Below, one piece after another: positions 10,427 to 27,931 of a stretch of DNA of 64,000 nt. The position numbers and the translations under genes are program-made. Location: the NCBI GenBank assembly GCA_016342345.1, contig JAEINO010000001.1:124001-188000 (forward strand), written 5' to 3'. Positions within the stretch are counted from its first letter, which is position 1, and every line of letters begins with the position of its first letter. This DNA is from Pseudodesulfovibrio sp. GTDB lineage: Bacteria; Desulfobacterota; Desulfovibrionia; Desulfovibrionales; Desulfovibrionaceae. The notes under the pieces are model-generated. The model had not been told where the DNA came from. It worked only from the letters and a program-made list of their open reading frames with translations, and made no database searches.

Positions 10427-12547
10427 ATGACTCGATTTCTTACAATTCTGACAATCCTGACCTGTGTTTTTTCAACCATTGAGATTTCGCCCGTCCAGGC
10501 ATCGTCCGACAAATCTTATGAACAATGGCTTGAGCAATATGGTGCCTGGGATCGTCTGGAAAATGAATACGCCAAGGAAGTTGACAAGGACTCCCCCGAG
10601 TTGATTCTCAAACGAGCCGAAGTTTACCTCAATTTGAATTCTCCGGCAAAAACACTTGAAATAATAGAAATGACACCGACCTTTGCGGACAATGCAACAA
10701 ATGCAGACCGACTGTGGCTTGGCGGACAAGCCCACAGGGCCTTGGGTGATCTTTCAAAAGCAGTCCTTTGGTTCACACAAGCTTCCAAATTTATTACAAA
10801 TAAATCAGAGGCTCAGCATAGGTTCAAGGCTGAACGAGATTTAAAATACGTATGGCATGATGTCTGGTTGAAAATGTATTGGTCTTACGATGCCAATTTT
10901 ACCCTATCAAGAAGCACGCAGAAAATGGCCTTGAATCAAATTCGTGAAGTCGGTCAGAATGTATGGAAAGGTTCATTTTGGGAACAAGCTGAATCAACTG
11001 TTAATCCTGCCGATTCAAACGCCACCCAAACATCAGTAGAATCCAAAAAAAACGAAAGAACGACTTCTGATGGCTTACCCATACCTCCCTTTATTTCCAG
11101 AACTGACACCGAATCTATTACCAAAGCCTTGGCAGCAGCATCACTTGAAAAATTTGAAGAAGCACAGATTCACCTCGCTTCTATTTCTCAAGAACCTGTC
11201 CGCATCTTTTGGACATCAATCATTATTTTTCTGCAAACTGGCACCATACCGTCAAATCTGGATATTTTTATCCAAGGTAATTTTCTTAAAGCACATGCAT
11301 TCTGGGCCGGAAACATGCTGGCACCCTACTCAATATCCAGAGACCAATGGTTATTAGGCAATCCAGACTCAGGACCATGGACAAAATTCAGAAACAATTT
11401 ATTGGCAATGCCGATTGATACAGCAAACAAAGCCATCGACAACGAACTTGGCTCAATGCTCATCTCCGACCAAACCGCAGCGCTTCTAAATAGCTTCAAG
11501 CTTGCATTTTCATTATCAAATGGAGATTTTATTAATACTGCAACTACCTGGAATAAAATAGATAAAACAAAATTGCCCATAACTTTGCAATTAGCTGGCC
11601 TCCTGTTGTTCAAGGATAACTTGAACAATGTCCTGCCACTCAACCCAGCTGAATCATTCAAACTGTACCCCATCTTGACTGCCCTTTCCGGCGCAGCTGG
11701 TCAGGATATGGTTGCCAAGACCGTAGCCCCCTTCTGGATAACAGCACCGTCTAATCAATTAAAAAAGATGTCACAACAGCAATGGCCAATGGACAAACTG
11801 CTTCTGCTTGCATACCACCAACAACAATTTAATAAGCAACCGTCCATTGAACTGGCCAAAAGATCAGCCTTCCTTTTCGATGATTCATCGTTTGGCATCA
11901 AAAGCATTCTATATCTGGCCGATGAGGCCGTACGTGCCAAGAAACTTCAACTTGGCGCATTTTATCTCAATAAAGTTGACGCAAACGCCTTACCAGGACC
12001 ACTCAAAGTAAGTTGGCTCGACACCAAAACACGTTTGGAACTGGATTCATCCAGACAGGAAGCAGCCTTAAAAACATACAAGGAAATGTTGGCCACGGGT
12101 GAACAAATTCCTGTCATGACCAGACTCCGCATGGCCCTCATCTTCCAACAACGAAGAGATTTTGAAGCTGCCAAGGAGCAACTGCTCGCCATGTGGAACA
12201 TGCGAGCCAGTCTGACCACAACCCTTCAGGCAGAGACCCTGTTCTGGCTCGGTGAAGGGGAACAGGCGGTCCTGAACACGGACAAGGCTCTGGATTATTA
12301 TCTGCACCTGGCTTGGCAGTATCCTCAAGAAAGCATATGGGCATTGACAGCCATGTATCGCGCCTCGCTTATTTATGAAAAACGAGGCAAATACGATACC
12401 GCCAAACGGCTGCTGAATACGGTAATAAGACGCGCAGATCGCAAAGAGCAGCGTGAAGCCGCAAAAGCTCGAATCAATGCCATAGACAAGAAAATGGGGA
12501 AACCATCCAAATCAAATCAATCGAGCACACTGGTTTATCCGTTTTAA
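10427..12547 (+). CDS. Exported TPR-repeat protein, function unknown
   Basis: A 706-residue protein with an N-terminal signal peptide (TRFLTILTILTCVFSTIEIS, cleavage probably after PVQA near residue 25). The rest looks helical throughout, with TPR-like units most visible at residues about 60-120 (LILKRAEVYLNLNSPAKTLE, LWLGGQAHRALGDLSKAV) and 560-690 (TLFWLGEGEQAVLNTDKALD, MYRASLIYEKRGKYDTAKR). The middle is poorly conserved in appearance. It is probably periplasmic and may act as a scaffold, as other periplasmic TPR proteins do. It is a single-gene unit: AGGA precedes the ATG and a terminator follows. No specific function can be assigned. Confidence 0.75.
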   Translation: MTRFLTILTILTCVFSTIEISPVQASSDKSYEQWLEQYGAWDRLENEYAKEVDKDSPELILKRAEVYLNLNSPAKTLEIIEMTPTFADNATNADRLWLGGQAHRALGDLSKAVLWFTQASKFITNKSEAQHRFKAERDLKYVWHDVWLKMYWSYDANFTLSRSTQKMALNQIREVGQNVWKGSFWEQAESTVNPADSNATQTSVESKKNERTTSDGLPIPPFISRTDTESITKALAAASLEKFEEAQIHLASISQEPVRIFWTSIIIFLQTGTIPSNLDIFIQGNFLKAHAFWAGNMLAPYSISRDQWLLGNPDSGPWTKFRNNLLAMPIDTANKAIDNELGSMLISDQTAALLNSFKLAFSLSNGDFINTATTWNKIDKTKLPITLQLAGLLLFKDNLNNVLPLNPAESFKLYPILTALSGAAGQDMVAKTVAPFWITAPSNQLKKMSQQQWPMDKLLLLAYHQQQFNKQPSIELAKRSAFLFDDSSFGIKSILYLADEAVRAKKLQLGAFYLNKVDANALPGPLKVSWLDTKTRLELDSSRQEAALKTYKEMLATGEQIPVMTRLRMALIFQQRRDFEAAKEQLLAMWNMRASLTTTLQAETLFWLGEGEQAVLNTDKALDYYLHLAWQYPQESIWALTAMYRASLIYEKRGKYDTAKRLLNTVIRRADRKEQREAAKARINAIDKKMGKPSKSNQSSTLVYPF

Positions 12548-12649: not shown

Positions 12650-13750
12650 TCATTTGGCCTGATCAGTCATATCCCTATACGATGATTTTACGCCACACAT
12701 GGGAATAAAAAGAATCTTCTTGCCATTGAGAGGAAGTTTTTCCAGATGCACCACACGAATATCCTGATTGTAATATGTACGGAAATACACACTTTTACGA
12801 GATAGATCATATACCGTGGCCCACTGGGTATAATCATATCCAAATGCACCCTTCTTGTCCTTTGCTCGCACTGCTCCGATAGGAATTGTTATGTTGCTTA
12901 TCAGGTTCCAGGCCAAATTTATCGCTCCATCTGCATCTTTGGCCGGGTCCACGGCATTGGCAAGGAAAGCAGCCCTCACAAATCTGGAAGGTGGCGTAAA
13001 ATCACCAGGAAGTCCCAGCATTCCAGACCCCTGCCCTATTGGGGCAACCTCAAGATTCCCCAACAGTCCTGGTTCGACATTATCTTTTCCAAGATTCACG
13101 TAATTACGCAGATTGGTAAGATGCCAGTCAAAGGAGGGAGAATTGGTAAAGATACCAATCTGATTCTCGGTAATCTTGATTCCTCCTTCTACCGGCTCAA
13201 TGACCAAAGCTCTCCCTGTTGAATCCATGACATACCAATGGACCGGAGGGACTCTGCCCATTGCTTCAAGAACGACTCCTGCAATCCTGATAGTGGCTGT
13301 TTTTTTCCTGACATCGTCGATGGTTGCACAATTTCCAAGAATCCAGTTACCAAAATCAGCCGGGGAAAGAGTCTTTGAATACTCTGCAGGCGTTACTGTC
13401 TGATATTGGGCTTCGCCGGGGAACCAGAACCCGCCGATATACAGCCCCTTCTCATTCACTCCCTCGATCAATACCTCTTCACCAAAAGCGTTAGGTCCCA
13501 TATACGCATATGTATTTTTCCATTTCATACCGGGCTTGCCATCTGGGGCTGAAGCCTGCCATGCCTGATCTTGTGGAACAAACATGATGCTTGACTGCAT
13601 CTCTGTTGCAAATTCCATTGTCCGTGCAAAAAACACTGAATCGTTCAAAGCCTTGACGCGAATTCCTGTGCACGCCCAGACAGGAACGGACACTATGATG
13701 GTTGCAATGAATGTGATGAGGAAAAAGTAACTGACTTTAGCTTGATACAT
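12650..13750 (-). CDS. Secreted choloylglycine-hydrolase-family amidase (linear amide C-N hydrolase)
   Basis: An Ntn-hydrolase of about 366 residues related to penicillin V acylase and bile salt hydrolase. It has a signal peptide ending VPVWA directly before CTGIRVKALNDSVFFARTMEF; the cysteine would be the N-terminal nucleophile exposed by signal-peptide cleavage, as in exported members of the family. Further family segments are LIEGVNEKGLYIGGFWFPG and YDYTQWATVYDLSRKSVYFRTY. The ATG at 13750 has GGAGG upstream and is preferred over a start 17 codons earlier. Possible substrates are N-acyl-homoserine lactones, penicillin V or other amides; bile salts are unlikely for an environmental bacterium, but the sequence alone does not decide. 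Confidence 0.85.
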   Translation of the reverse strand: MYQAKVSYFFLITFIATIIVSVPVWACTGIRVKALNDSVFFARTMEFATEMQSSIMFVPQDQAWQASAPDGKPGMKWKNTYAYMGPNAFGEEVLIEGVNEKGLYIGGFWFPGEAQYQTVTPAEYSKTLSPADFGNWILGNCATIDDVRKKTATIRIAGVVLEAMGRVPPVHWYVMDSTGRALVIEPVEGGIKITENQIGIFTNSPSFDWHLTNLRNYVNLGKDNVEPGLLGNLEVAPIGQGSGMLGLPGDFTPPSRFVRAAFLANAVDPAKDADGAINLAWNLISNITIPIGAVRAKDKKGAFGYDYTQWATVYDLSRKSVYFRTYYNQDIRVVHLEKLPLNGKKILFIPMCGVKSSYRDMTDQAK

Positions 13751-14008
13751 GTTGCGTCCTCCATGAATACGAATAATTGTCATTAATAACGCATACTGCA
13801 CTACCTGAGAACAAAAAGTCCAGAATCTGTTTTATTGAAAATCATATCCAAATTAGGGAAAAACCAAGGCAAACTGCACGGCAAGTCCAAACAATTTCTG
13901 CTATCGATTTAAGGTGCACTCTCCGCCTTGTTGTCTTTCATCTCCTCCCCCGGGGAAATGATGTCAAAGAAAAATTCACGCCGTTTTTAACTGCTTTGAA
14001 AAATACAA

Positions 14009-14104: not shown

Positions 14105-14131
14105 AATGGTGCCGAGGGGGGGACTCGAACC
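14105..14131. repeat. Left attachment site (attL) of the integrated element
   Basis: A 27-bp sequence identical to 27843-27869, which is the 3' end of the intact tRNA-Leu gene including CCA. Beyond 14131 similarity to the tRNA is lost, so this is a tRNA fragment and not a gene. Such flanking repeats are the product of integration by a tyrosine recombinase; the matching integrase lies at 26003-27691. Confidence 0.9.
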
Positions 14132-14233: not shown

Positions 14234-14264
14234 TTCAGCAAACATTTTTTTATAAATATCCCTA

Positions 14265-14361
14265 TCCGATTTGTTGCGCACATAATATCCGACGAGCTAG
14301 CGTTAAGGGTGCTACTCCTTTCAGGGTGGTAATACTTCAACCCAGTAGAAGCGTCTACTGG
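14265..14361 (+). promoter_or_regulatory. Conserved structured leader of polymerase-like gene 1
   Basis: Positions 14265-14329 match the leader of the next gene (15844-15909) at 58 of 66 aligned positions. The block contains two TCCGA elements 23 bp apart, a GAG...CTC pairing and ends CAGGGTGG. Twelve bases later is a perfect hairpin with arms CCAGTAGA (14342-14349) and TCTACTGG (14354-14361) and loop AGCG, ending 5 bases before the GGGAGA ribosome binding site. The corresponding hairpin of leader 2 has a different sequence but the same place. This suggests a structured 5' RNA; a DNA-level operator or replication site is the alternative. Confidence 0.65.
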
Positions 14362-14378
14362 CCCATGGGAGAATAACC

Positions 14379-15719
14379 ATGATCAGACCAAAAAGAGGAA
14401 TCCCTTACAACAAGGATCTGGAATGTTTCAAGGATGAAAATAGCCGTCCGCTGGATGTTCATCTGAATACCAGCCAATGGCAGATACGATCTATTACAAA
14501 GAAGGTGTTGCTTGACCTAATGACCAAGCTGCCTCCACAGAAGACTTACCAGAACAACTACATCGATCATCTGCAGATTTTGGTGTTGAACCTATTTGTC
14601 GCTTACTTAGAAGGGAAGCACATGTGGATCGGATACCCCCGGAATGCGGAAGCACAGTATTCCGAGCGGTTCAAAAGACTTCATATTTCTGGATATTATA
14701 TCGCCAAACTGGTCGACCGCCTAGAAGAACTTGGATATGTGCAAAACGTCATCGGTTATAAAAACCACAGTACTAAAGAAGGAAAGCAATCCCGCATCCA
14801 AGCCACCGACAAGCTCTTCGCGGTCCTTATGGAAAATGATATTAATGCGGACATGATTCATAACAACTTCATGAACCCGGAAGTGATTTTGCTTTCCAAT
14901 AATCCTTGGATGGAATGGGGGGAAAAGAAGGTTGAATGGACCGAATACGTGATGGCGCGAGAAGAAGAAGTGTCCGGCATCAACGAACTGATCAAAAAGG
15001 CCGACATCGAGCTGAACATCTCGCCGGATGAAATGCTTCGCCTGCAGAATCAAATGAAGTGGCGTAATCCAGATTTCCGGCTGGCCTGGTACGGCACACG
15101 CTACCGACGCATCTTCAGCGGCGATTATGAACATGGCGGTCGCTGGCAAGGCCACTGGGTCCTTTGCATCCCCAACGAATACCGTAGGCAGATCAGCATC
15201 AATGGTGAAAAGGTCGTCGAACTGGGCTATGTCAATCTTCACCCCCGTATGACCTATGACCTTGCGGGGGCCCCTATGCCTGAATGTGATTTGTATACCT
15301 ACCCAGAAGTTGATGCCGGGGTAAATGCTCGGAAGGTGCGCAAAGTAATTTTCAATTGTCTTCTAAACGCCGAAACTTTTCGCAAGGGGTACATCAGTGC
15401 CATCTACAATTTTGAAGACGATGAAAATATCAATCTATCGTGGCTAAAAGTACGCGATATTGCAAATAAAATGAAGAAATACCACGCACCAATTGCCGAC
15501 TATTTTGGCACTGGCCTTGGACTGAAGCTTCAGCATATGGACAGTGAAATCGCGCGGGATATCCTGATAGATTTGAAAGATGCCGGGATAATCTGCTTGC
15601 CCGTACATGAGAGTTTCATCGTTGCCCGCCAACATGAAGATAAGCTGCGGCGATTGATGATCTACCATTATCAGAAGAAGATGGGCAATACGCCTGTTGT
15701 TGACCGGAATGAAGGCTAG
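14379..15719 (+). CDS. Family A / T7-type polymerase-like protein, paralogue 1, catalytic sites altered
   Basis: A 446-residue protein paralogous over its whole length to the next gene. The C-terminal half carries three segments in the order and style of single-subunit polymerases. Motif-A-like: VVELGYVNLHPRMTYDLAG (Gly283 where the paralogue has Asp). Motif-B-like: RKVRKVIFNCLLNA, with Arg318 and Lys322 in the R-x3-K spacing. Motif-C-like: LPVHESFIV (Glu411 for Asp). Between them, KLQHMDSEIARDIL resembles the helix before motif C in T7 RNA polymerase. Both positions that would bind catalytic metal are thus changed, so this copy may be inactive or regulatory. ATG at 14379 has GGGAGA upstream. 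The family assignment is from motifs by eye and is moderate. Confidence 0.6.
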   Translation: MIRPKRGIPYNKDLECFKDENSRPLDVHLNTSQWQIRSITKKVLLDLMTKLPPQKTYQNNYIDHLQILVLNLFVAYLEGKHMWIGYPRNAEAQYSERFKRLHISGYYIAKLVDRLEELGYVQNVIGYKNHSTKEGKQSRIQATDKLFAVLMENDINADMIHNNFMNPEVILLSNNPWMEWGEKKVEWTEYVMAREEEVSGINELIKKADIELNISPDEMLRLQNQMKWRNPDFRLAWYGTRYRRIFSGDYEHGGRWQGHWVLCIPNEYRRQISINGEKVVELGYVNLHPRMTYDLAGAPMPECDLYTYPEVDAGVNARKVRKVIFNCLLNAETFRKGYISAIYNFEDDENINLSWLKVRDIANKMKKYHAPIADYFGTGLGLKLQHMDSEIARDILIDLKDAGIICLPVHESFIVARQHEDKLRRLMIYHYQKKMGNTPVVDRNEG

Positions 15720-15740
15720 TCTCTGGACGGATTCAAAAGG

Positions 15741-15766
15741 GGATGGCTTCGGCCATCCTTTTTTTT
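15741..15766 (+). terminator. Rho-independent terminator after polymerase-like gene 1
   Basis: GGATGGC, a TTCG tetraloop and GCCATCC followed by eight T. It separates the two paralogous genes, so each has its own transcription unit and leader. Confidence 0.95.
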
Positions 15767-15843
15767 GAACATCATCTTTCTGAATAGATAGAAGAAGGAG
15801 AATAACGAACCTCTCCTCCAAGTAATTTGTGAAAATACCCGTG

Positions 15844-15945
15844 TCCGATTTGTTGCGCCCAAAATATCCGACGAGCTATCGTTGTGGGTGCTGCTCTGTT
15901 TCAGGGTGGCCCAACCCATAACTGCAGGTGGATGAAATCCCCTGC
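15844..15945 (+). promoter_or_regulatory. Conserved structured leader of polymerase-like gene 2
   Basis: Positions 15844-15909 are the second copy of the conserved leader block. Fourteen bases later is a hairpin with arms GCAGG-T-GGAT (15924-15933, one bulged T) and ATCC-CCTGC (15937-15945) around GAA. It ends 6 bases before AAGGAG. Its sequence is unrelated to the hairpin of leader 1, while position and pairing are kept, as expected for selection on structure. In this copy GGGT (15904-15907) could also pair with ACCC (15914-15917). Confidence 0.65.
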
Positions 15946-15964
15946 TCGCTCAAGGAGATTTTAA

Positions 15965-17302
15965 ATGGCAAAAGTCACACTGGCTGACATTGAAAAACAT
16001 GCAAAACTGCCCTGCTTCAAGGACAAGAATAGCCGCCCATTGGACACTCACCGTAAGTCAGACCATCCAGAGGTGGATGAAGCTGTGGCGCATGTGTTGT
16101 CCAAGATGAATTATACCCCACCCCAACAACAGACTTATCATGATGCTTTCATACGTAACCTGAAAACTTTGGTGTTGGATTTATACGTTGCATACCTCCA
16201 AGGGCCAGATATGTGGATTGGCATCGCGCGGAAACGTGCAAATCAGCATACCACCCGCTTCAAGGCTCTTCAGCTATCAGGACACACAATCGCAAACCAG
16301 GTCGACATCTTCCAGCAGTTGGGATTTGTTGATATGGTTCCCGGCTATTACAATATGAAGACACAGACGGGGAAACAGTCGCGGGTGCAAGCCACAGACC
16401 GCCTGTTTGAAATCTTGCTTGAGTATGACATCAATGATCAGATGCTCGGTCGGAAGAAGCATGACATGATCATCCTTCGAGAAAAGGACGAAGCGGGAAA
16501 GAAGACGGACATTGATATTGCTGACCACCGTCAGGCAGGACGGCCTTGGTTCGATATGTGGCAATACAATAGCACCCTTGCCACTGCTAATGCCACGCTC
16601 GGCATTGACCAAGGGGAACAGCTGCGCTTGATGAAACGAATGCATTGGCGGCCCGGTTTCAGGCTTGAGATGCTCGGCACGGAATACCGCCGCATATTCA
16701 ATCGCTTTAACGGCGAAGACTTCCTCTACGGTGGCCGTCTGTATGGGCACTGGTGTCTGAATATCCCTAGCGAGCTCCGTGAAGATATATACATCAATGG
16801 TGAAAAGACTGTAGAACGCGACTTTAAAGCCCTTCATCCGAGCATGGCGTATGATCTAGCCGGGAAAAACATGCCGGACGGCGATTTGTACACCTGGCCA
16901 AATTGTAAATTTGGTGAAAAAGAACGTAAGATCAGGAAAATCCTGTTCAACACGCTCCTTAACGCCGACACGCCTGATAAAGCTTTTGGCGGTGCTTATG
17001 GATGCTTGCAAGATAAACACGAAATAGATGTGTCATGGGGCTATATTAAATCACTGTACGAACCTTTGGTGAAGCACCATTCTCCTATCGCGGAATTCTT
17101 CGGGTCTGGCTTGGGACGTAAACTTCAGTTCATCGACAGTGAAATCGCCATGGGCGTTCTGCTTGACCTCGCAAGCGAAGGGATCGTGGCCTTGCCTGTT
17201 CATGACAGCTTCATCGTTCAGGAAAGACACGAAGACCGCCTAGTTGAACTAATGAAATGCCATTATCGGGGTCGAATGGGCAGCACACCAGAGATTGACT
17301 AA
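15965..17302 (+). CDS. Family A / T7-type polymerase-like protein, paralogue 2, catalytic residues kept
   Basis: A 445-residue paralogue of the preceding gene. Motif-A-like TVERDFKALHPSMAYDLAG has Asp286. Motif-B-like RKIRKILFNTLLNA has Arg321 and Lys325, then Asn-Ala where polymerases usually have Tyr-Gly. Motif-C-like LPVHDSFIV has Asp414, close to the HDSF box of T7-type RNA polymerases. The segment KLQFIDSEIAMGVLLDLASEGI precedes it as in that family. The first 200 residues have no recognised domain. The protein is much shorter than T7 RNA polymerase or Pol I, so it may be a template-restricted polymerase or the element's replication protein. AAGGAG precedes ATG at 15965. It lies downstream of its own leader and terminator-insulated. 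Confidence 0.65.
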   Translation: MAKVTLADIEKHAKLPCFKDKNSRPLDTHRKSDHPEVDEAVAHVLSKMNYTPPQQQTYHDAFIRNLKTLVLDLYVAYLQGPDMWIGIARKRANQHTTRFKALQLSGHTIANQVDIFQQLGFVDMVPGYYNMKTQTGKQSRVQATDRLFEILLEYDINDQMLGRKKHDMIILREKDEAGKKTDIDIADHRQAGRPWFDMWQYNSTLATANATLGIDQGEQLRLMKRMHWRPGFRLEMLGTEYRRIFNRFNGEDFLYGGRLYGHWCLNIPSELREDIYINGEKTVERDFKALHPSMAYDLAGKNMPDGDLYTWPNCKFGEKERKIRKILFNTLLNADTPDKAFGGAYGCLQDKHEIDVSWGYIKSLYEPLVKHHSPIAEFFGSGLGRKLQFIDSEIAMGVLLDLASEGIVALPVHDSFIVQERHEDRLVELMKCHYRGRMGSTPEID

Positions 17303-17317
17303 AATATGAATAGCATA

Positions 17318-17338
17318 AAGGGGGCTTCGGCCCCTTTT
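17318..17338 (+). terminator. Rho-independent terminator after polymerase-like gene 2
   Basis: GGGGC, a TTCG tetraloop and GCCCC followed by TTTT, 16 bases after the stop codon; the same hairpin design as the terminator of paralogue 1. Confidence 0.9.
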
Positions 17339-17699: not shown

Positions 17700-18347
17700 C
17701 TAGAAATATAGGCTTCTATTGTCGATGTGAGTGCGCAATTTGTTGAAAGCCCCAGAGTGATTGAGCTCATATTTACGCCAAATGAAGTTTGCCATGAAAT
17801 CTGCGAATTGTAGGTTGCGATTCATATGACTTTCTTGGGGAAGATCAGTAATTTTTGTCTGGGCATTTTCCTTCATCCACAGTTCTGTTTGAAGGTAATC
17901 TGCCAAACTATTCCCACTGGCAACTTTTATGGCGCGTTTGTCCGGTACAAAGTCTACCACTGGATGCATTTTAATATGATCCAAAAGAATAAGGCGAATC
18001 ATGAAATTATATAGCTTGTTCGGATCGTTGCGAATGTGTTCCATCACGTTCTCTTTCTTTACGGTGATGGCGGCGATTTTGATGTCTTGATGCTTCTCAA
18101 GAAGGGTAACGGTTTTCATCGCAAAGTCCGTTCTATCTCTATTTGAAAGATCGGATGCTTTTAGTTCTTTGTCTTTTGCGATCTTAAGTTTCTTCCGGAG
18201 CTTTATGATCATTCGCTTGGGTAAATCTTTTTTTGCCTTTGGGCAGATGGTCATAGCTATAGTCAAATAACGACTAGACCCCCCTTGTCTATAGGGAGCG
18301 TCGAATTTCCAACCCAAGTCACCACTTTCATCGAGATGTACAATCAT
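17700..18347 (-). CDS. DUF3800 domain protein (RNase H-fold nuclease-like)
   Basis: A 215-residue protein opening with VHLDESGDLGW, the DESG signature of DUF3800, and ending with LQFADFMANFIWRKYE, the second conserved segment with an acidic residue. These acidic residues are arranged like the active site of RNase H-fold nucleases, but activity of the family is not established. It stands alone on the minus strand, and immediately upstream (14 bases) is the terminator of a short structured RNA with its own promoter (18357-18521). DUF3800 genes are known to be linked with structured RNA motifs in mobile elements. A toxin or RNA-dependent nuclease role is an inference from that layout. Confidence 0.8.
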   Translation of the reverse strand: MIVHLDESGDLGWKFDAPYRQGGSSRYLTIAMTICPKAKKDLPKRMIIKLRKKLKIAKDKELKASDLSNRDRTDFAMKTVTLLEKHQDIKIAAITVKKENVMEHIRNDPNKLYNFMIRLILLDHIKMHPVVDFVPDKRAIKVASGNSLADYLQTELWMKENAQTKITDLPQESHMNRNLQFADFMANFIWRKYELNHSGAFNKLRTHIDNRSLYF

Positions 18348-18596: not shown

Positions 18597-19169
18597 TTAT
18601 TCTTCCTTCATCGCTTCCGCAAATCTCATAAGGTCAAAGAACATAGAAACGGTTTCGGAGTCTCCATCCTTATCTTTTGGTTGGACAAAGTTGAAGTCGT
18701 TCTTTTCATAAAATTCAATGGCATTTCTGTAAGCATCTACCGTCATAAATCGGCAGCCAGTTCTATTGGCAGTAGTGAAAATATGCTTCAAAACAGTAAC
18801 CAAGTTAGTACCGATACCTGTTTTAGCAAGTCCCTCCATCACTGCAAGCCTTCCAATTTTAACGGCCGGAAATTCGTTGTACCGTTTTGCTTGTGGAAAT
18901 TTTTTCTTCTTCCTACTTGTTGTCAGATGTCTGATAGAATCATTAAGCAAACTGACGTATGCAACGGGTACAGAGATTTCACCGTCTCTCTTTAAATGGA
19001 AGGCGTATGTAACGGCGAGGAGTTTTTCTTTGTGGGGAAGAGCGTCATTCACTATGAAATCATCCAGATCGTCATCACCACAACAAAACCCGTCAAAGAC
19101 ATTGAAGTCTTCAACGGGTTCTAATATACAGTTATCGTCTTGAAAATCAGTTCGCGCAGGCGAAATCAT
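18597..19169 (-). CDS. GNAT acetyltransferase, probable TacT/AtaT-type toxin
   Basis: A 190-residue Gcn5-related N-acetyltransferase. It has the N-terminal FCCGDDDLDDFIVNDA segment typical of toxin-type GNATs, KIGRLAVMEGLAKTGIGTNLV carrying the acetyl-CoA pyrophosphate loop (G-x-G), and the C-terminal NAIEFYEKNDFNFV segment with the conserved Tyr. TacT/AtaT toxins acetylate aminoacyl-tRNA. A small gene overlaps its start by 23 bases on the same strand, the usual antitoxin-first order. The antitoxin here is not a recognised RHH protein, so the pairing is inferred from layout. Confidence 0.75.
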   Translation of the reverse strand: MISPARTDFQDDNCILEPVEDFNVFDGFCCGDDDLDDFIVNDALPHKEKLLAVTYAFHLKRDGEISVPVAYVSLLNDSIRHLTTSRKKKKFPQAKRYNEFPAVKIGRLAVMEGLAKTGIGTNLVTVLKHIFTTANRTGCRFMTVDAYRNAIEFYEKNDFNFVQPKDKDGDSETVSMFFDLMRFAEAMKEE

Positions 19170-19533: not shown

Positions 19534-22500
19534 CTAATTAAGACAATAATCATCACCCTCACCTGCATAAATAAATCCTTGGGCAACAAGAGTATCAAGT
19601 ACTTCCTGAACTCTGGCACGAGGAGCTTGCTTGTAGCACTTGGCAACCTCTTCCATATCGCCGCTTCCACCCATCCGAGCAAGCGCAGAACGAACAGCTT
19701 GGAACTGCTCTGGTAAAGATTTCGGCCATGGCGTAGGTTTAACTTTCGCCTTCTTTATCTTCGTCTTTCGACCCTTTTTAACCGTTACGCCCAAGCTTGC
19801 TTGTTCGACTTCTTGATCTGCGCACTGATATTCAGGACGTAACCACTTAATTTTACCATTTTTTTCTTCTTCTGCACGGGCAAGGTTGAGTTCAACCAAG
19901 TTTGACAAAATATCATCGGCCGATAAAGTCACGTCCCACCCATATGCTTCTAGAACAGCTACATCGAGTCGAGCGTGCGTATCCTTGAGCAGTGAGACCA
20001 ATCCTTTATCATTGATCTTGCGCTCGGAAGTGGACAATTCACGCCCCTCTCGTAATGCTTCCAGCACATTATACATCTGAGTGACAGTTAAATCGGGATA
20101 CAATGCTTGTTGGCGTTTCCGGTGCGTATCGATGTCTTCTCCGATGCTACGTATGGCGGCCTTTTGATCTGGTGTTGCGGCAGGAAAAGGGAATGGCCCA
20201 AAGCAACGGGTATTGTTATAAACGGGACGGTCCTCCAAGGTTCCACCAGCAGCTAACGCCCAAGTTACATGTACACGGCTAGATAAAACCCCAAGAAGAT
20301 ATGCATCATCTGATGCAATTACTCGAATTTTTTGATCAGGGAGAACATTTGCATCAATAAAAATAAACGTTCTGTGTTTCGCAGTTTCAGTTGTGCCAAT
20401 AAACCTTTGCAATGAAGACAATGCTTTCCTCATTGCAGGACGCTTTTCACCAAATTGCAGCCACTCCTTACGATGAGACTCTCGTTTGACCTGAGCCCTT
20501 ATGGGCTTCACTCGATCAAGGATTCGTTGAAATGCGATAGGAAACTGAGTTCTTGCCTCTGCTTCAGTTAATCCAAAAAAGTCAACGACGTAACAACCAC
20601 GTGTTTTTGTGTGATGTCACGGCCATTTAAATATGGTTTAACAACACCAGGCTCCTGCTCTATCAAAGATTCTTCAGCTTCAACAATGAAGCCAGAGCCT
20701 ACGAGTATCACCCCCATAAATGAGAGCCCTTCATTGCTTGAAAGAGGCCCGGCACTCGCAACATCAGCCTTTGCTGTCAGATCTGCATGAATAATTCCCC
20801 GACTAACATCTAACTCAACAGCTGTTCCTTTGCCATTGTCTGCATGCTCAGCAATCACCGAAGCCAATGTCCCCTCAACGCCTTCACTGGCTGGCTTCCC
20901 AACAGTCATTGCTATTCGTACCGCAGCACCATCAGACAAATTCACCCAAGGATGATCGGAGATCGCAAAAGCCAATGACAAAGCAGGACTGCTCTTAAGG
21001 TGCTGCTGTAGCAAGCGACGATTGAACGCCATAGTCAGGCTATTGGTTGTAATGAAACCAAACCTTCGCAGTTCACCATTTCGGGTCATTTCAGCGGCTT
21101 GATGCCACCAGTACATAACAAAATCAGATGTGTCAGGAACATCCTTCCATGTATTTCGCAAGCATTCGGTGTAGCCATCACCAAGGGTCAGCCGCATTCT
21201 CTTGTTGCCGATGAATGGCGGATTTCCCACCACAAAATCAGCATTGGGCCATTGGGCCTTACACGGATTAATGTATTTTAAAATCGGCACCTGCATTTCT
21301 TCATCAGGGACCTGTTCGCCAGTTACGGGGTGTGTTTTTGTCGTCACCCCATCCCACCGAGTCACGGTGTTCCCATCTTCATCTACAACAGGTTCTGTTG
21401 AGTCATATTCAAGAATTGCATCACGACATTCAATATTTCTGTATTTTCTTAAAATTGGTTCTTCGATCGAAAGCTTGCCATGACTCCTTATTTGCCATTG
21501 CCAATGTCCAATCCATAAAACCATTTCAGCGATGTAGGCGGCACGCTCATTCAATTCAATGCCCAAAAACTGCTCAGGCAAAATAGTATGCCCTTTTACC
21601 TCCAAGGGCATTTGGGTTTCCCCATATGACTTTGCTTCATTCAGGACTTCAACTTCAAGGCGTTTAAAGTGTTCCATTGCGACATACAGAAAATTCCCAG
21701 TCCCACAAGCGGGGTCCAGTACATGAATAGAGCATAGCTTGCGGTGAAACTTCAAAATTTCTTTCTGGGCTTCTTTCTGTTTGCCTTGTGCTGAAAGTAG
21801 TTCAGCGGCAGATTGAACATCCTTCCAGTCATCCCGTATAGGCTCAACGACAGCAGGTAAGACCAATCTTTCAACATATTCGCGTGGAGTGTAATGCGCA
21901 CCGAGTTTATGCCTTTCCTTCGGCATTAAAGCTTGTTCAATCATGGTTCCGAAGATTGATGGCTCTACATCTCGCCAATCAGCTTTAGCAGCCTCAAGCA
22001 AGATAGAAATTTGATACTTCGACAGGTCGTATGCTTTGGGCTTTGAAAAGACACTTCCATTAAAGCGGCGCAGCTTTTGGCCCAATGAAACAGATATCGA
22101 ACCGCTATTCATGGCTTTCCACAAATCTTCCGTCATCACCTTAAAAATTTCTGGAGAATCATATGATTTTTCAAGGTGTGACTGAAAGCTTTCCGGTGGA
22201 AGAAGGCCAACATCTTCTGAAAAAAGTGTGAATAAACAACGGATGAGAAACGTGGCAACATCTTCAGAAGAATATTCGTCTTCTTCAAGGCTACGAGCCA
22301 GTTCAGCCAAATGTCTGGCTATCTCCTTCGTAACCTTTTCAGCCTCTTTCGTCGGGTCTAAAGAATGTGGCTCAAGCCAGATACCCTTCAACAGCTCTCT
22401 TGTTTCTTTATCCTTAAGAGCTTCTAATGGGATATGATTTGAATTTCCATCTGGAAATGGAATGTAGTTGCCACCAGTGCATGAAAATTCGGAATAGATT

Positions 22501-22961
22501 TCAAAGCAGTAACCAACGTCACCAACAATGATAAACGGAGGCCGTCCTTCGTCACTAGGCAATGCTTTTACATATGTTTCAGCCTGCCTCTTTGCACGGT
22601 CCATCACGCTACGCCATGCACGTGATCCACGTTTTACCGCACTTGAACGGGCTTGGTCATTCAAGTGGACAGGACGAGGCTCTTCAAATTTATCTTGCCC
22701 CTGTTTTGACTCAAATATGAAGCAGCCCTTTTTATATAAATCGAGCCTCTTCCATGTCTCTTTATCTTTTGCTCCCAGCGGAGGGACTTTCCTTTCAAAG
22801 GAATAGGTGTTTTCACAGTAATCTGGCGTTGATGGGTCTGGCTTCGGCATTCCCAAGATGTCGCAAAGTTCTACCAGAAACAACTGGGAGTTCCCTTGTT
22901 CACTCCCACCGGATTTCGACCATCGGTCAATGAATGCATCAATTGTTACTGGAGCTGCCAT
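19534..22961 (-). pseudogene. MmeI-like restriction endonuclease-methyltransferase, frameshifted
   Basis: A type IIG-like single-chain restriction-modification protein of about 1140 residues, split into two frames. The first frame (22961 to 20568) has an N-terminal PD-(D/E)xK-like site (DLYKKGCFIFESKQG), methyltransferase motif I LDPACGTGNFL, motif IV NPPFIGNKR and LNGRDIT. After LNGRDITQK the frame drifts to a stop. The second frame (to 19534) resumes with YVVDFFGLTEAEARTQFPIAFQRIL and continues through the target-recognition part (RFIGTTETAKHRTF, GPFPFP). Adding one A to the AAAAA run at 20604-20608 (T5 on the plus strand) joins them. It is either a real frameshift, a phase-variable tract or a sequencing error. 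Confidence 0.8.
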
Positions 22962-23134: not shown

Positions 23135-23830
23135 TCAATCTTCTGGCATCCACCAGTAGTATGGAAATGCGTCATTGGTGATGTAGTATCGCTCAAGAGC
23201 GGCGGCGGCCCGAGCGGTTGTATGCGTGCCTGCAAACGGGTCAAGAATGACATCTCCTTCATCAGTGATAGCTTCAAGGATATATTTCATTACTTCCATA
23301 GGCTTTTGTGTTGGGTGCATACTTTTTCCGTCACTTTTCTTCACACGCTCATTTCCACTACAGATGCCTGTTTTGATATAGTTCTGAATTCCCTCCTCCT
23401 TGTCCAGTTTGAAATATGAATTGGGGTTGGATGCATGAAGCGCAAATTCAACACTTTCTGCAAATCTATTGAGTTTTTTAAACTGCCTCTCCACAGGGTT
23501 GGTCTTGCACCAAACAAACTTTTGAAGCCGTGAGAAATACTTCCCAAGCTCCTGATACCATGCGCCAAACTGAAAATCAGAACAAAAAACGAATACGTTC
23601 CCTTTAGGCTTTGTCACTCTTCCAAACTGGTATGCAAGCCAGTCTATATGAATGTCCCCATCATCCCACGCTTGATTATCAATATTCAGCCCGTAGGGAG
23701 GATCAGTCACAACGGCATCTACACAGTGCGGCCCCATACACTCAAGAAGCACAAAAGCGTCAGCCCTATACTTTCGACCATACTCAGAGTCTTCATAGGG
23801 TGGGTTGCCTTCAATTTCGATTTTCATCAT
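23135..23830 (-). CDS. DNA N4/N6-adenine or cytosine methyltransferase (TDPPYG type)
   Basis: A 231-residue beta-class-like methyltransferase: the catalytic DPPY box comes first (VVTDPPYGLNID, about residue 40) and the SAM-binding segment later (GDVILDPFAGTHTTARAAAAL, near residue 200). HPTQKPMEVMKYIL between them is typical of N6-adenine/N4-cytosine enzymes. The start ATG overlaps the stop of the XRE gene (ATGA), so the two are translated together. No restriction endonuclease partner is seen next to it, so it may be an orphan methylase or protect against an enzyme elsewhere. Confidence 0.85.
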   Translation of the reverse strand: MMKIEIEGNPPYEDSEYGRKYRADAFVLLECMGPHCVDAVVTDPPYGLNIDNQAWDDGDIHIDWLAYQFGRVTKPKGNVFVFCSDFQFGAWYQELGKYFSRLQKFVWCKTNPVERQFKKLNRFAESVEFALHASNPNSYFKLDKEEGIQNYIKTGICSGNERVKKSDGKSMHPTQKPMEVMKYILEAITDEGDVILDPFAGTHTTARAAAALERYYITNDAFPYYWWMPED

Positions 23831-24315
23831 TCGATATCCCCAATAGATGTCAATTCGACGGGGCGGTTTGCCCAGACATCATCAGGAACAAATTCAAAAT
23901 TTTCGCTGATAAAATCCCGCATTTCTATCAAGTCATTATTTTGTATTTCTGCTGCAAGATGATGTCTGCGTTTTTGTCTTAATTTCGGTTTTCCCGTTGT
24001 GTGACAAAGGTTAGCAGCTTTGGCAAAAGCTTCGTCTGTTTGAAGTATCGCTATTAAAGTCTCATATGCTTCTGGGTAAATTCTCGACAATATCAATCTT
24101 CCAAAGGGAGCAACTGGAAGCTTATAGGCTTTGGAAAATTCGCCAATTTTCCCAATTGGTATGACTGCTTTCCCTTTTTCTACTCGTGAAACAAAGTTCG
24201 GTCCTGAATGCCCTAATCTTTTGGCAATCTTTTCTTGAGTTAATCCTTTCCGCCGCCTGACAATGGACAGATAGATCCCAATTTCTTCTTTTATCTTCTG
24301 TTCTGCGCTTAACAT
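23827..24315 (-). CDS. XRE-family helix-turn-helix regulator
   Basis: A 162-residue protein with an N-terminal HTH (residues about 10-70: RRRKGLTQEKIAKRLG, NFVSRVEKGKAVIP). The C-terminal 90 residues are not recognised. It is cotranscribed with the methyltransferase (4-base overlap). Upstream of its start are an inverted and three direct copies of a 23-bp site (24336-24455), so it probably represses its own operon, like controller proteins of restriction-modification systems, though it is longer than classical C proteins. Confidence 0.8.
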   Translation of the reverse strand: MLSAEQKIKEEIGIYLSIVRRRKGLTQEKIAKRLGHSGPNFVSRVEKGKAVIPIGKIGEFSKAYKLPVAPFGRLILSRIYPEAYETLIAILQTDEAFAKAANLCHTTGKPKLRQKRRHHLAAEIQNNDLIEMRDFISENFEFVPDDVWANRPVELTSIGDIE

Positions 24316-24459: not shown

Positions 24460-25004
24460 ATCTTGGTCACCTTGAGAGAAATTGGATTTTTTAATCATTG
24501 TTTATCCAAAGAAAAAAAACAATGAGAAAATTCAGCCAGATACTTGCTTTCTGCTTTTCCGAGAGCATATACTGTACGTGTATATCAATTACATTCAGTA
24601 TCAGTCGGAGGTTTTTAGATCGCGTCATCAGTTTTTTCAAAACTGATGACGCATACCGAACCCCTTACGGTTCAACGCTTCAGCGGTTGTTTCAAAAACA
24701 AACCACTGATTACAATCCCAAACGTAGCTGTATCAGCGCACACCACACCCAGATGGATGATCATTTTGATGGTCATTGTCACCATCCCCTACGGCCATTT
24801 TTCCTTATCAGGAGGTCAGCACTTTGAGGCTGTCCATGGCAATCTATATTAACTGATTTTTCGCCAGGTTCTCTTGGCGTGGGAACGGGCATTTGTCCAT
24901 TCCGTTGTGTTGTTGCGTGTGACGATTATCGTCACGAAGTCGGTCCATTAGACTGACTTGCCTTGGACTTTTTGTCCAAAACCATCTTGCCAAGGAGAAT
25001 ACCA
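24460..25004. other. Hairpin-rich region without a secure gene
   Basis: Between the operator array and the recombinase I see no secure protein gene; two short overlapping frames (24522-24827 and 24646-24852) lack ribosome binding sites and recognisable motifs. Several strong inverted repeats occur: 24622-24652 (14-bp perfect arms GCGTCATCAGTTTT), 24862-24879 (CGCCA/TGGCG), 24918-24934 (GTGACGAT/ATCGTCAC) and 24963-24979 (TTGGAC/GTCCAA). The last sits next to the recombinase ribosome binding site. This may be a structured RNA, an origin-like region or a decayed gene. Confidence 0.5.
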
Positions 25005-25967
25005 GTGGCCGGAAGATCAGACAGTTTGCGTTACGCAGTGGGAAGAGCGTCCCTATCGGGACCACGAACAAAACAAGCACGGATACGTGCAGGAGCAAAT
25101 CGCTTCGCTACCGCCCTTCGCTCTGCGAACATGGGTGTATCGAAATGGGAAAATGTCTCCAATAAACATTACCAGACCGTAGCCGATCAAATGCGAAGTG
25201 AAGGTTTGGAATATGGAAGAATTGCAGAAGTGTTCGCATCAGCGCGACACCTCTGCAAAGCGTACGGAAATGACTGTATATCAAACAGCAACGCCAGTTT
25301 CGGCGTGGCAAGAGGATCAATCTCCAATCAGATTTCAAGGGCGATTGATCCAGATTATATCAACAAGGTGATTTATGACCTTGCACAAAATGATACGTAT
25401 GAACACGCCCCCAGAGCGGCGGCACAAATACGTTTACAGTACGAGTTGGGCCTACGGCGCGAAGAAGCTGCCAAGGTCGATCTTAATAACGATTGGGACC
25501 GTGAGTCCCGGACATTATACATCCAATATGGTCCCAAAGGTGGCCGCCACAGGATGATAGAAGACTTGTCACCAGAACAAGAAAACGCGCTTACAGCAGC
25601 ATTACCTTTTGTCAGCCCATCAAACCGCGAAGGCATCAATAATCTGATGCCCGAAGGAATGGGAGACAGATGGCAAAACTGCCTGAGCTACGCCGCCCGA
25701 AAGCACGGGTTAACAAAGGACCAATGCGGTTTCACACTGCATGGGAATAGACACGAAAGGTTCCGGCAGGTGTACTTGAATGAGGCAGGTTTTGAACCAC
25801 CCAACAAGTTCGCTTCGATTGCGGAATTCCACGAAGCGGCGGTCCAAGTCGCAGGAGAAAACTGGCACGCCAAAGATGCGGAAGCCCGTAATAAAATTGA
25901 GCAGCTTGCAGGACATTCCGCAGGTCGCAGAGACGTAAGCAGTGCCTACTTGGGCAACAGCTTCTAA
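25005..25967 (+). CDS. Second tyrosine recombinase (integrase-domain protein)
   Basis: A 320-residue protein with catalytic-domain marks of tyrosine recombinases in its second half: Arg in YELGLRREEAAKV, TLHGNRHERFRQVY as the H-x-x-R box, IEQLAGHSAGRRDVSSAYLG with the later His and the Tyr. This resembles the integrase-domain group often found in proteobacterial islands. GTG at 25005 is chosen because AAGGAG lies 7 bases upstream and an upstream TTG at 24963 has no such site. AAGG can pair with CCTT in the hairpin just before it, which could limit translation. It may act as the excision partner or belong to an older insertion. Confidence 0.75.
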   Translation: MAGRSDSLRYAVGRASLSGPRTKQARIRAGANRFATALRSANMGVSKWENVSNKHYQTVADQMRSEGLEYGRIAEVFASARHLCKAYGNDCISNSNASFGVARGSISNQISRAIDPDYINKVIYDLAQNDTYEHAPRAAAQIRLQYELGLRREEAAKVDLNNDWDRESRTLYIQYGPKGGRHRMIEDLSPEQENALTAALPFVSPSNREGINNLMPEGMGDRWQNCLSYAARKHGLTKDQCGFTLHGNRHERFRQVYLNEAGFEPPNKFASIAEFHEAAVQVAGENWHAKDAEARNKIEQLAGHSAGRRDVSSAYLGNSF

Positions 25968-26002: not shown

Positions 26003-27691
26003 CTATTTGATGACGAACTTGGACTTGGTCAAGTGTGCCAAGTCAAGTTCATAATCCAGTTTTGATATGACCCGTTCAAAACACAGATCAGGCGGAAAAA
26101 TACCACCATACGTGGATGCCGCCAGCTTCTCCAACTTGTGACCAAACGTCTGTTCGAACGGATCGGTCTGGATTTCCCGTTGTTTGTAGAAATCCGCGAA
26201 CGTGTGCCGGAAGCTATGAAACACCTTTGCGCCTTCGGACTCTTCCAGTTCAATGGTATTCCTGAAATTGCTAAACCGTTCGCCAAACTTGTGGCCGTAG
26301 TTGGTGTTGATACGTACCAGCTCTGGGAAGACTCGGAGGTGCTTCTTTTCCTCTTGGCGCTTGGCGAACTCTGGGAACTTCATCACATCCGCAAGGAACG
26401 GGTGAAGCGGGATAAGCCGTTTCGCGTTTTTGTTTTTGAGCTTCTTGCGATCAAAGCCATTCACGTTGAATTTTTTGTTGATGTCCAGGACCCACACGCC
26501 CCTTTCTTGCCGCACATCCTCGACATGCAACTGGCAGAGTTCTTCACGCCGCGCCCCTGTGTATAGACCCAGGATTGGAACCCAAAAATCAGAAGGACGG
26601 TGAAAGGTATCCTGCATGTACCCCGGGGAGTAAAAGATATTGTGCAAATCTTTGTCAGTGAAAGGAGAACGGTGTTCGATATCGTCCTTTTCTTCTTTGA
26701 TTTTCAGACGCATACACGGATTACGGACGATCAGTTCCTCATCTTCGCACCATGTGAAGAACGTAGAGGCGTTGCCAATATTGTTGTTGACCGTACGTAC
26801 GGAAATGGTCTGGTCCGGTTCTAATGCGACCAATTCTGGGATGGTTTTATTCTTGAAAATATTCGTTGAGTTCCGGCGCAACGGGAGTTGCAGGAGTGTA
26901 TCCCGCACAAGACGGGTCGCGTTTCGATCGATCGTGTCGATAGGAATATGTTCACCCAAAATGTCAGGCAAGCACTTAAGAGTGGACATAGTGTCCCCGG
27001 CACTTTTTGCATTACTCCACTCTTTCTTGGCAGTTTTATCTGCCTCATATCGCTTCAAGGCTTCTTTCAGGGTGAGAACGGGCTTCTGCTTCTTTTCCGG
27101 CTCTGAAGTTGGTGCAGCATAGGTCGGCTGCGAAGGCATTACTGTCTTTTCGAAGTCATAATCACCTTGCGCCCGATGCTTTAGTATTGTGTATAGCTTG
27201 ACATGTGACCGAGCAAATTCATGAGCATAAACCCGCTTTTTACGCATGTCAGCGGGTAAACCAGGGGCACCATCTTTTGCCATTTCTTCCATTATTTTTA
27301 TAAGTTCATCATAATCCTTTCGTGCCAATAAATCTTGGAATAGCTTCAAGAATGCATCGATTTCACTTGATGATTTATAGACAGGAGTCCCATCAAATCC
27401 CCGTTCTTCAGTTTCACGAAGTTCCCACTGAATGTAGTCATCCCATTTTGCTTTTACGTCGTCTTGAAATCCCATATCGATCATCCCCCGGAGTAGCTTG
27501 ATAATTGAACTTACGCCCGATGAAAGGCGGTTTGCATATGGCCGAGCTTTTGCTCTAAAGCCAGTACGCAATGATACCCGTACTTCTGATTGACCGACAT
27601 AAGGCCGAATATCAGCTGGCACCGACTGACGAAAGTAGTAGATGTTACCCTTGAGGTAAAGATGATTGGGGGAGCGTGTGATTTTCGGCAT
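26003..27691 (-). CDS. Tyrosine integrase of the element
   Basis: A 562-residue phage-type integrase. The N-terminus MPKITRSPNHLYLKGNIYYFRQSVP is the DUF6538-like arm-binding start seen in many proteobacterial island integrases. Then come a long core-binding region and the catalytic domain with Arg in LYTGARREELCQL, KNKNAKRLIPLHPFL, HSFRHTFADF and the Tyr in LAASTYGGIFP; the second His lies in EQTFGHKLEK. The ATG at 27691 has GGAG 9 bases upstream. The frame is open further up to 27874, but that part only translates tRNA sequence. It lies inside attR and reads away from tRNA-Leu. Confidence 0.92.
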   Translation of the reverse strand: MPKITRSPNHLYLKGNIYYFRQSVPADIRPYVGQSEVRVSLRTGFRAKARPYANRLSSGVSSIIKLLRGMIDMGFQDDVKAKWDDYIQWELRETEERGFDGTPVYKSSSEIDAFLKLFQDLLARKDYDELIKIMEEMAKDGAPGLPADMRKKRVYAHEFARSHVKLYTILKHRAQGDYDFEKTVMPSQPTYAAPTSEPEKKQKPVLTLKEALKRYEADKTAKKEWSNAKSAGDTMSTLKCLPDILGEHIPIDTIDRNATRLVRDTLLQLPLRRNSTNIFKNKTIPELVALEPDQTISVRTVNNNIGNASTFFTWCEDEELIVRNPCMRLKIKEEKDDIEHRSPFTDKDLHNIFYSPGYMQDTFHRPSDFWVPILGLYTGARREELCQLHVEDVRQERGVWVLDINKKFNVNGFDRKKLKNKNAKRLIPLHPFLADVMKFPEFAKRQEEKKHLRVFPELVRINTNYGHKFGERFSNFRNTIELEESEGAKVFHSFRHTFADFYKQREIQTDPFEQTFGHKLEKLAASTYGGIFPPDLCFERVISKLDYELDLAHLTKSKFVIK

Positions 27692-27724
27692 CAGAGCAAT
27701 CTCCGGCGGTAGACATTTCTGGGT

Positions 27725-27758
27725 TTTTGACCCAGCACTTTGACCCACAGGGTCAAAA
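27725..27758. promoter_or_regulatory. Three TTTGACCCA-type sites upstream of the integrase
   Basis: Direct copies at 27725-27736 (TTTTGACCCAGC) and 27738-27749 (CTTTGACCCACA), and an inverted copy at 27747-27758 (TTTTGACCCTGT on the minus strand). They match the pair near attL (14209-14233), 13 bp apart as there. They lie between the integrase start and attR, so they could be arm sites and could also repress int. Confidence 0.6.
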
Positions 27759-27842
27759 CACGCCAAAAAGAAGATTTGCATGTAAGTTGCCGTAATAAAA
27801 AGAGGAAGGGTTACAGACATTTGCCTGTAACCCTTTAAGTTC

Positions 27843-27869
27843 AATGGTGCCGAGGGGGGGACTCGAACC
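27843..27869. repeat. Right attachment site (attR) within the tRNA-Leu 3' end
   Basis: Identical over 27 bp to 14105-14131. It covers the T-arm, acceptor strand and CCA of tRNA-Leu; the tRNA remains whole on this side. Confidence 0.9.
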
Positions 27870-27931
27870 CCCACGGAATTTCTTCCACTGCCCCCTCAAG
27901 ACAGCGTGTCTACCAATTCCACCACCTCGGC
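27845..27931 (-). tRNA. tRNA-Leu (anticodon GAG)
   Basis: 87 bases. The acceptor stem GCCGAGG pairs with CCTCGGC, with encoded ACCA. The anticodon stem CTGTC/GGCAG encloses TTGAGGG, giving anticodon GAG. The long variable arm typical of tRNA-Leu and the T-arm GTTCGAGTC are present. It follows secG by 14 bases and is the integration target of the neighbouring element. Confidence 0.97.

What the first reader, a model, noticed from the sequence alone, without database searches (positions are those of the whole stretch)
14265..17302. Tandem single-subunit-polymerase-like genes, each with its own conserved leader and terminator
Two full-length paralogues (446 and 445 residues) sit side by side, but each unit is leader-gene-terminator, so this is a duplicated module and not one operon. 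The C-terminal half shows segments in the order of polymerase motifs A (VERDFKALHP), B (R-x3-K) and C (LPVHDSFIV), the last close to the HDSF box of T7-type RNA polymerases. The proteins are about half the size of known family A enzymes. A small polymerase with a linked structured RNA in a defence-type island could be a new RNA-templated or RNA-primed system, or a replication protein with a regulatory leader.
Basis: partly seen in the sequence, partly recalled or inferred. Interest (0 to 1): 0.9.

Follow-up and report, generated by a model that had tools for sequence, protein, structure and literature searches.

The report
Paired mini-polymerases on a mobile element
Two side-by-side genes on mobile DNA inserted in a bacterial tRNA gene encode small cousins of DNA polymerase I, a family so far described in phages; one looks active, while its neighbour has lost its catalytic residues but is otherwise preserved.

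Summary

Three points go beyond what I read in print. (1) The pair lies in a 13.8-kb element inserted in tRNA-Leu, and 18 of 79 relatives in bacterial genomes lie in complete elements bounded by repeats of a tRNA or tmRNA end. (2) The N-terminal domain resembles a winged helix (weak but consistent evidence). (3) W1 lacks both catalytic aspartates, alone among the full-length relatives examined, yet its branch is no longer than W2's.

The leader was found only at this pair, so an obligate linked RNA is not supported. My mechanism is inferred: W2 starts or performs DNA synthesis for the excised element, placed by its N-terminal domain, and W1 is a non-catalytic partner or regulator. RNA polymerase remains a live rival.

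The parts
14105..14131 (.). attachment repeat, outer end of the element: 27 bp identical to 27843-27869
14239..14378 (+). leader of W1: conserved block 14239-14329, then a hairpin (14342-14361) and the start of W1
   Evidence: hairpin place read from the fold
14379..15719 (+). W1: divPolA2-family protein, 446 aa, both catalytic aspartates absent (Gly, Glu)
   Evidence: PHROG_4756 E 2.7e-55
15741..15766 (+). intrinsic terminator after W1 (hairpin with TTCG loop, eight T)
   Evidence: direct reading; hairpin listed on the other strand
15819..15964 (+). leader of W2: conserved block 15819-15909, then a hairpin and the start of W2
   Evidence: (z -5.34 for 15862-15967)
15965..17302 (+). W2: divPolA2-family polymerase, 445 aa, catalytic residues intact (D286, R321, K325, D414)
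   Evidence: PHROG_4756 E 1.2e-47; model pLDDT 92.5
17321..17338 (+). intrinsic terminator after W2
   Evidence: direct reading; hairpin listed on the other strand
17700..18347 (-). element cargo: DUF3800 protein
   Evidence: PF12686 E 8.1e-9
18597..19169 (-). element cargo: GNAT acetyltransferase
   Evidence: PF13673 E 1.2e-6
19534..22961 (-). element cargo: MmeI-type restriction-modification gene in two ORFs (20568-22961 and 19534-20511)
   Evidence: PF20473 E 7e-36, PF20466 E 7.6e-10
23135..23830 (-). element cargo: DNA methyltransferase
   Evidence: PF01555 E 2e-28
23827..24315 (-). element helix-turn-helix protein
   Evidence: PF13560 E 1.5e-7
24963..25967 (+). second integrase-like protein
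   Evidence: PF12835 E 2.7e-8
26003..27874 (-). tyrosine integrase beside the tRNA end
   Evidence: PF00589 E 6.1e-9, PF20172 E 4.8e-15
27843..27869 (.). attachment repeat at the 3' end of tRNA-Leu
27845..27931 (-). tRNA-Leu (gag), insertion target

Best explanation
Shown by computation: both genes are members of the divPolA2 family of compact family-A-type polymerases, carried by a 13,765-bp integrative element in the 3' end of tRNA-Leu; W2 keeps the polymerase active-site residues and W1 has lost both metal-binding aspartates while keeping 24 of 27 strongly conserved positions. Inferred: W2 makes DNA, or a primer, for replication of the excised element. Its N-terminal winged-helix-like domain would place it on element DNA, most simply at the conserved leader, which would act as operator or as part of an origin. 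W1 would bind the same site or W2 itself without synthesis, as regulator or structural partner. Steps inferred and not shown: DNA rather than RNA as product, binding to the leader, replication of the element, any W1-W2 interaction.
Confidence: 0.42

Rival explanations
1. W2 is a small single-subunit RNA polymerase that transcribes element or phage genes, with the leader as its promoter.
Against: Gate position is His in 100 of 111, with a small residue in 1 of 111, whereas T7 RNA polymerase has Gly there (recalled). The leader does not occur before other genes of the window. Profile comparison with the T7-like RNA polymerase of phage KASIA reaches only probability 4%, at motif C.
Confidence: 0.2
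2. W2 is a repair or gap-filling DNA polymerase of the element or its helper phage, with no role in starting replication.
For: Proposed for phages in print; the exonuclease domain is absent; phages carry it besides a regular polymerase.
Against: It recurs in small elements in which no other replication protein was recognised and usually lies near the integrase: median distance 1.1 kb in 58 loci.
Confidence: 0.17
3. The pair is part of anti-phage defence or counter-defence cargo: W1 is a dead decoy that poisons a phage divPolA2 or its replication complex.
For: The family occurs in lytic phages (230 phage records by tblastn) and in elements with restriction-modification genes; W1 keeps the fold-defining positions but not the catalytic ones.
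Against: No PADLOC model matches W1 or W2. The closest phage protein found is about 26% identical to W2 over 90% of it, so no matched target is known.
Confidence: 0.1
4. W1 is simply a decaying duplicate without function.
For: Two key residues are lost and no second case was found among relatives; only one genome carries this pair.
Against: The reading frame is full length; the branch is no longer than W2's; leader and terminator are kept; 24 of 27 strongly conserved positions are kept.
Confidence: 0.25

Closest known systems
divPolA2 of tailed phages (Yutin and colleagues 2024, PMC11348598; section 13 and passages read)
   Same: Same sequence family by PHROG_4756; compact palm and fingers with motifs A, B, C; no exonuclease domain; structural neighbours are Pol I and mitochondrial RNA polymerase; several paralogues per genome.
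   Different: Here in a tRNA-integrated bacterial element; one copy of the pair has lost both catalytic aspartates; the N-terminal domain, reported there as without detectable similarity, gives weak winged-helix matches here; gate residues are His and Asn where the exemplar has Glu and Tyr.
Pol I (family A DNA polymerase, PF00476)
   Same: Fold and order of motifs over residues 162-445.
   Different: No PF00476 match; no 5' or 3' exonuclease domain; about half the length; different N-terminal domain.
T7-type and mitochondrial RNA polymerases
   Different: Bulky residue at the gate position; no clear sequence similarity.
Phage satellites such as PICMI (PMC10803314, passages seen)
   Same: Small integrase-carrying chromosomal element with one replication-type gene.
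   Different: PICMI has a primase and AlpA and sits next to fis; here a polymerase in a tRNA gene. Mobilisation by a phage was not tested.
Plasmid pIGRK with two antagonistic Rep proteins (PMC6854812, start of abstract seen in the listing)
   Same: Idea only: a second version of the replication protein opposes the first.
   Different: Overlapping in-frame proteins of a plasmid, and an unrelated protein family as far as I know (recalled).

Membership tests
divPolA2 | Sequence homology to the published proteins | tested here: met
   PHROG_4756: W1 2.7e-55, W2 1.2e-47, exemplar AUR84708 1.8e-91; W2 against the exemplar 22% over 354 columns, E 1e-10.
divPolA2 | Palm with catalytic residues of motifs A, B and C intact | tested here: met
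   W2: D286, R321, K325, D414 present. Not met by W1, which has Gly and Glu at the two Asp positions.
divPolA2 | No 3'-5' exonuclease domain | tested here: met
   Residues 1-161 match no exonuclease in the rows shown; only weak winged-helix-type rows; the polymerase part starts at about residue 162.
divPolA2 | No thumb homologous to other polymerases | tested here: inconclusive
divPolA2 | Encoded by tailed phages beside a regular DNA polymerase (context in the first description) | tested here: not met
   The window copy lies in a 13.8-kb element without recognised phage genes among 8 proteins scanned. This is context rather than definition; the family itself also occurs in phages.
Family A DNA polymerase (Pol I, PF00476) | Match to the curated Pfam model | tested here: not met
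   No PF00476 hit for W1 or W2 at E 1, while host Pol I hits it in 31 of 31 genomes.
Family A DNA polymerase (Pol I, PF00476) | Family-A polymerase fold | tested here: met
T7-type single-subunit RNA polymerase | Small residue (Gly) at the position five after the motif-A Asp | tested here: not met
   His in W1 and W2; G, A or S in 1 of 111. The Gly of T7 RNA polymerase is recalled.
T7-type single-subunit RNA polymerase | Promoter-recognition N-terminal domain of the T7 type | tested here: inconclusive
   The N-terminal model gives only weak winged-helix-type matches.
T7-type single-subunit RNA polymerase | RNA synthesis | not testable with these tools
   Needs an enzyme assay.
Integrative element in a tRNA gene | Integrase plus direct repeats of the tRNA 3' end | tested here: met
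   27-bp repeats 13.7 kb apart, tyrosine integrase beside the tRNA.
Phage satellite (PICI, PICMI) | Induction and packaging by a helper phage | not testable with these tools
   No helper is known; packaging genes were not looked for specifically.

The most novel reading that the evidence does not exclude
An origin-binding family-A polymerase that itself starts replication of small tRNA-integrated elements: the winged-helix-like domain docks on a cis-acting leader, the palm makes the first primer or DNA strand in place of a primase, and in this element a duplicated copy stripped of both catalytic aspartates has become a dedicated partner or copy-number brake acting at the same leader, a 'prozyme' for a polymerase.
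Probability: 0.18. Interest if true: 0.85.

Novelty: new variant of a known kind. Interest (0 to 1): 0.6.

Why it matters
divPolA2 was described as an orphan phage polymerase of unknown role. Finding it beside integrases at tRNA and tmRNA ends in Proteobacteria and Desulfobacterota, in small elements where no other replication protein was recognised, gives the family a context in which its role can be tested genetically. A full-length polymerase paralogue without catalytic aspartates, kept next to its active sister, would be a rare natural case of a pseudo-polymerase and lets partner, brake and decoy models be told apart.

Tried and rejected
Leader as a general RNA of the system: blastn in 60 relatives found it only in the window's own genome; no leader-like motif upstream of 147 homologues (best 8-mer in 12 of 147 against at most 8 in shuffles, RBS-like or AT-rich); covariance model R1 found only the two window copies in 89 sources, and in 288 family genomes only two weak further hits (E 0.0076 and 0.053) whose loci show no polymerase gene; Rfam gave four sub-threshold hits. 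A 15-base leader word matches 43 viral stretches, none of which holds a divPolA2 gene.

Leader as a promoter class for the polymerase: no copies before other window genes. The consensus promoter scan finds fewer sites than shuffles do (5 against 5.8) and none in the leaders.

Dead paralogues as a general habit: 13 of 29 phage records gave two or three matches (G306's two, and two of G322's three, look like pieces of one gene), but all 42 rows that cover both motifs keep both Asp (43 rows, some fetched twice, one fragment). Among 187 distinct ORFs (202 hits) 175 show Asp at both, two are W1 (whole and cut copy), one is a misaligned fragment, nine lack a column. The loci were sought with patterns that require the motif-C Asp, so the motif-C count is biased; the motif-A count is not, nor are the 34 proteins, of which three came from tblastn and the rest of the non-window rows from the PHROG profile.

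Controls: 20 windows of 17 kb at places I picked in genomes of the same order: tyrosine integrase 2 of 20, serine recombinase 0 of 20, tRNA 3 of 20. They come from one order, while the 79 loci come from many groups, and some loci are shorter than 17 kb. Random segments reach a repeat of 14 bp in 1.7% and 16 bp in 1.1% of 360 trials.

Empty site: 11 relatives' loci were looked at; the TPR gene was placed in four, 0.2 kb from the tRNA in one and 1.1-1.3 kb in three; seven gave no answer.

Pfam, NCBIfam and PADLOC gave no family for W1 or W2; PDB sequence searches gave nothing with one protein or profile A2 and five weak N-terminal rows with A4, best E 0.024, to a PadR regulator. Paper searches for the family outside phages; the name divPolA2 is in one paper and its preprint. 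A paper on bacterial DNA polymerases (PMC12926913; abstract, passages and section 15 read) does not describe such a group in the parts I read.

Full report
What is there. Two ORFs lie on the plus strand, 14379-15719 (W1, 446 aa) and 15965-17302 (W2, 445 aa), 45% identical. Their leaders share 75 of 92 columns, more than the coding DNA (54%) or the fourfold sites of identical residues (30 of 85). After each gene stands a GC-rich hairpin with a TTCG loop and a T run. Folded as RNA, the W2 leader is more stable than its shuffles (z -5.34) and the W1 leader only slightly (z -1.59); of 23 consensus pairs one shows a change on both sides, so two sequences cannot establish an RNA structure.

It is a known family. 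A 2024 paper on phage polymerases names a divergent group divPolA2, first seen in 110 barbaviruses, with two or three paralogues in some phages, an active palm, no usual thumb, and an N-terminal domain without detectable similarity (PMC11348598, section 13). Its modelled exemplar AUR84708 hits PHROG_4756 at 1.8e-91 and W2 at 22% identity over 354 columns. So W1 and W2 belong to divPolA2 by sequence. The group is widespread: 230 phage records by tblastn, 35 of 297 genomes of the class (9 of 60 in an overlapping sample of relatives), and 141 confirmed places in genome contigs, of which 79 loci were kept. The window's genome has a third copy on another contig.

Where it sits. A 27-bp repeat of the tRNA-Leu 3' end at 14105 and 27843 bounds a 13,765-bp element with a tyrosine integrase beside the tRNA, an MmeI-type restriction-modification gene, a DNA methyltransferase, a helix-turn-helix protein, a GNAT enzyme and a DUF3800 protein. 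In four of 11 relatives' loci examined, the TPR gene that lies to the left here (10427-12547) sits 0.2 to 1.3 kb from tRNA-Leu, so the insert is absent. The pattern is general: of 79 bacterial loci, 58 have a tyrosine recombinase and 64 a tyrosine or serine recombinase within the fetched DNA, against 2 of 20 control windows; 42 have a tRNA or tmRNA, and the nearest one points its 3' end at the polymerase in 38 of 42 (p 6e-8) (control windows with tRNA 3 of 20). Eighteen of the 79 are complete elements of 6.0-14.5 kb bounded by 17-64-bp repeats, all with a tyrosine integrase. Of their 91 other proteins, Pfam families were fully listed for 82: regulators, nucleases and others, but no primase or replication initiator; the nine longest were scanned only in a run that shows 25 of 51 families, rich in restriction-modification.

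The first gene is catalytically degenerate. In 111 aligned proteins, Asp stands at the motif-A position in 110 and at the motif-C position in 110; the exception in both is W1, with Gly and Glu. The loci were sought with a motif-C pattern, so only the motif-A count is unbiased; in 34 proteins found without that pattern the count is 33 of 34 at each. Second copies in phages keep both. W1 loses 3 of 27 strongly conserved positions, two of them these. In a tree of 44, W1 and W2 are sisters (100/100), branches 0.75 and 0.85. I read this as a retained pseudo-polymerase; decay cannot be excluded from one genome.

DNA or RNA. At the position that in Pol I is the Glu gate against ribonucleotides and in T7 RNA polymerase is Gly (both recalled), the family has His in 100 of 111 and a small residue in one of 111; the exemplar has Glu, and also Tyr where most of the family has Asn. 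A bulky residue favours dNTPs, but the fold fits both enzyme types, so this is an inference.

The leader is local. It was found at no other homologue. It is best seen as a cis element shared by the two copies.

Mechanism. The element carries no other recognised replication protein among 8 scanned. W2 has a probable DNA-binding domain and a compact polymerase core, which in print lacks a usual thumb and would suit short synthesis. I therefore favour W2 as the enzyme that starts or performs synthesis for the excised element, and W1 as a non-catalytic partner or regulator at the shared leader (confidence 0.42). RNA polymerase (0.2), repair polymerase (0.17) and defence or decoy (0.1) remain; decay of W1 (0.25) is a rival for that part only.

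Verdict. Real, and a new variant of a known kind: a divPolA2 pair, one member catalytically degenerate, on a tRNA-integrated element.

Noticed in passing
L301 1-5073 (contig C99 of the window's genome): Third divPolA2 copy (548 aa from its first ATG) on a 5-kb contig that begins with what reads like a tRNA 3' end, followed by an integrase-like and an AlpA-like frame (read by eye), so probably a second integrative element.
   Followed up: partly
L076 1813-11096: A viral-collection contig with three near-identical divPolA2 copies at spacings of 4659 and 3347 bp, with a tyrosine-recombinase-like frame between the first two: looks like a tandem array of a small element.
   Followed up: partly
window 19534-22961: The MmeI-type restriction-modification gene is in two ORFs (797 and 325 aa), with the target-recognition domain at the start of the second: probably interrupted or split.
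   Followed up: no
window 24963-25967: A second integrase-like protein (PF12835) besides the tyrosine integrase at the tRNA.
   Followed up: no
W2 residues 291 and 333 in the family alignment A4: His/Asn pair in 96 of 111 proteins where the published exemplar has Glu/Tyr as in Pol I: a possible coupled change at the nucleotide gate.
   Followed up: partly
L136 7884-15542: Two divPolA2 genes on opposite strands with a tRNA-Leu between them, perhaps two neighbouring elements.
   Followed up: no
L032 1498-2085: A divPolA2 copy broken by two in-frame TGA codons; left as it is.
   Followed up: no
nearest neighbours of the polymerase in loci L112-L190 (alignment A7): One of the 120 neighbours scanned is a defence-type reverse transcriptase (PADLOC RT-Protease_XI, E 5.1e-178).
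   Followed up: no
window 12650-13801: A choloylglycine-hydrolase family gene (PF02275) lies between the element and the TPR gene; no match was found in the 11 relatives' tRNA-Leu loci held.
   Followed up: no
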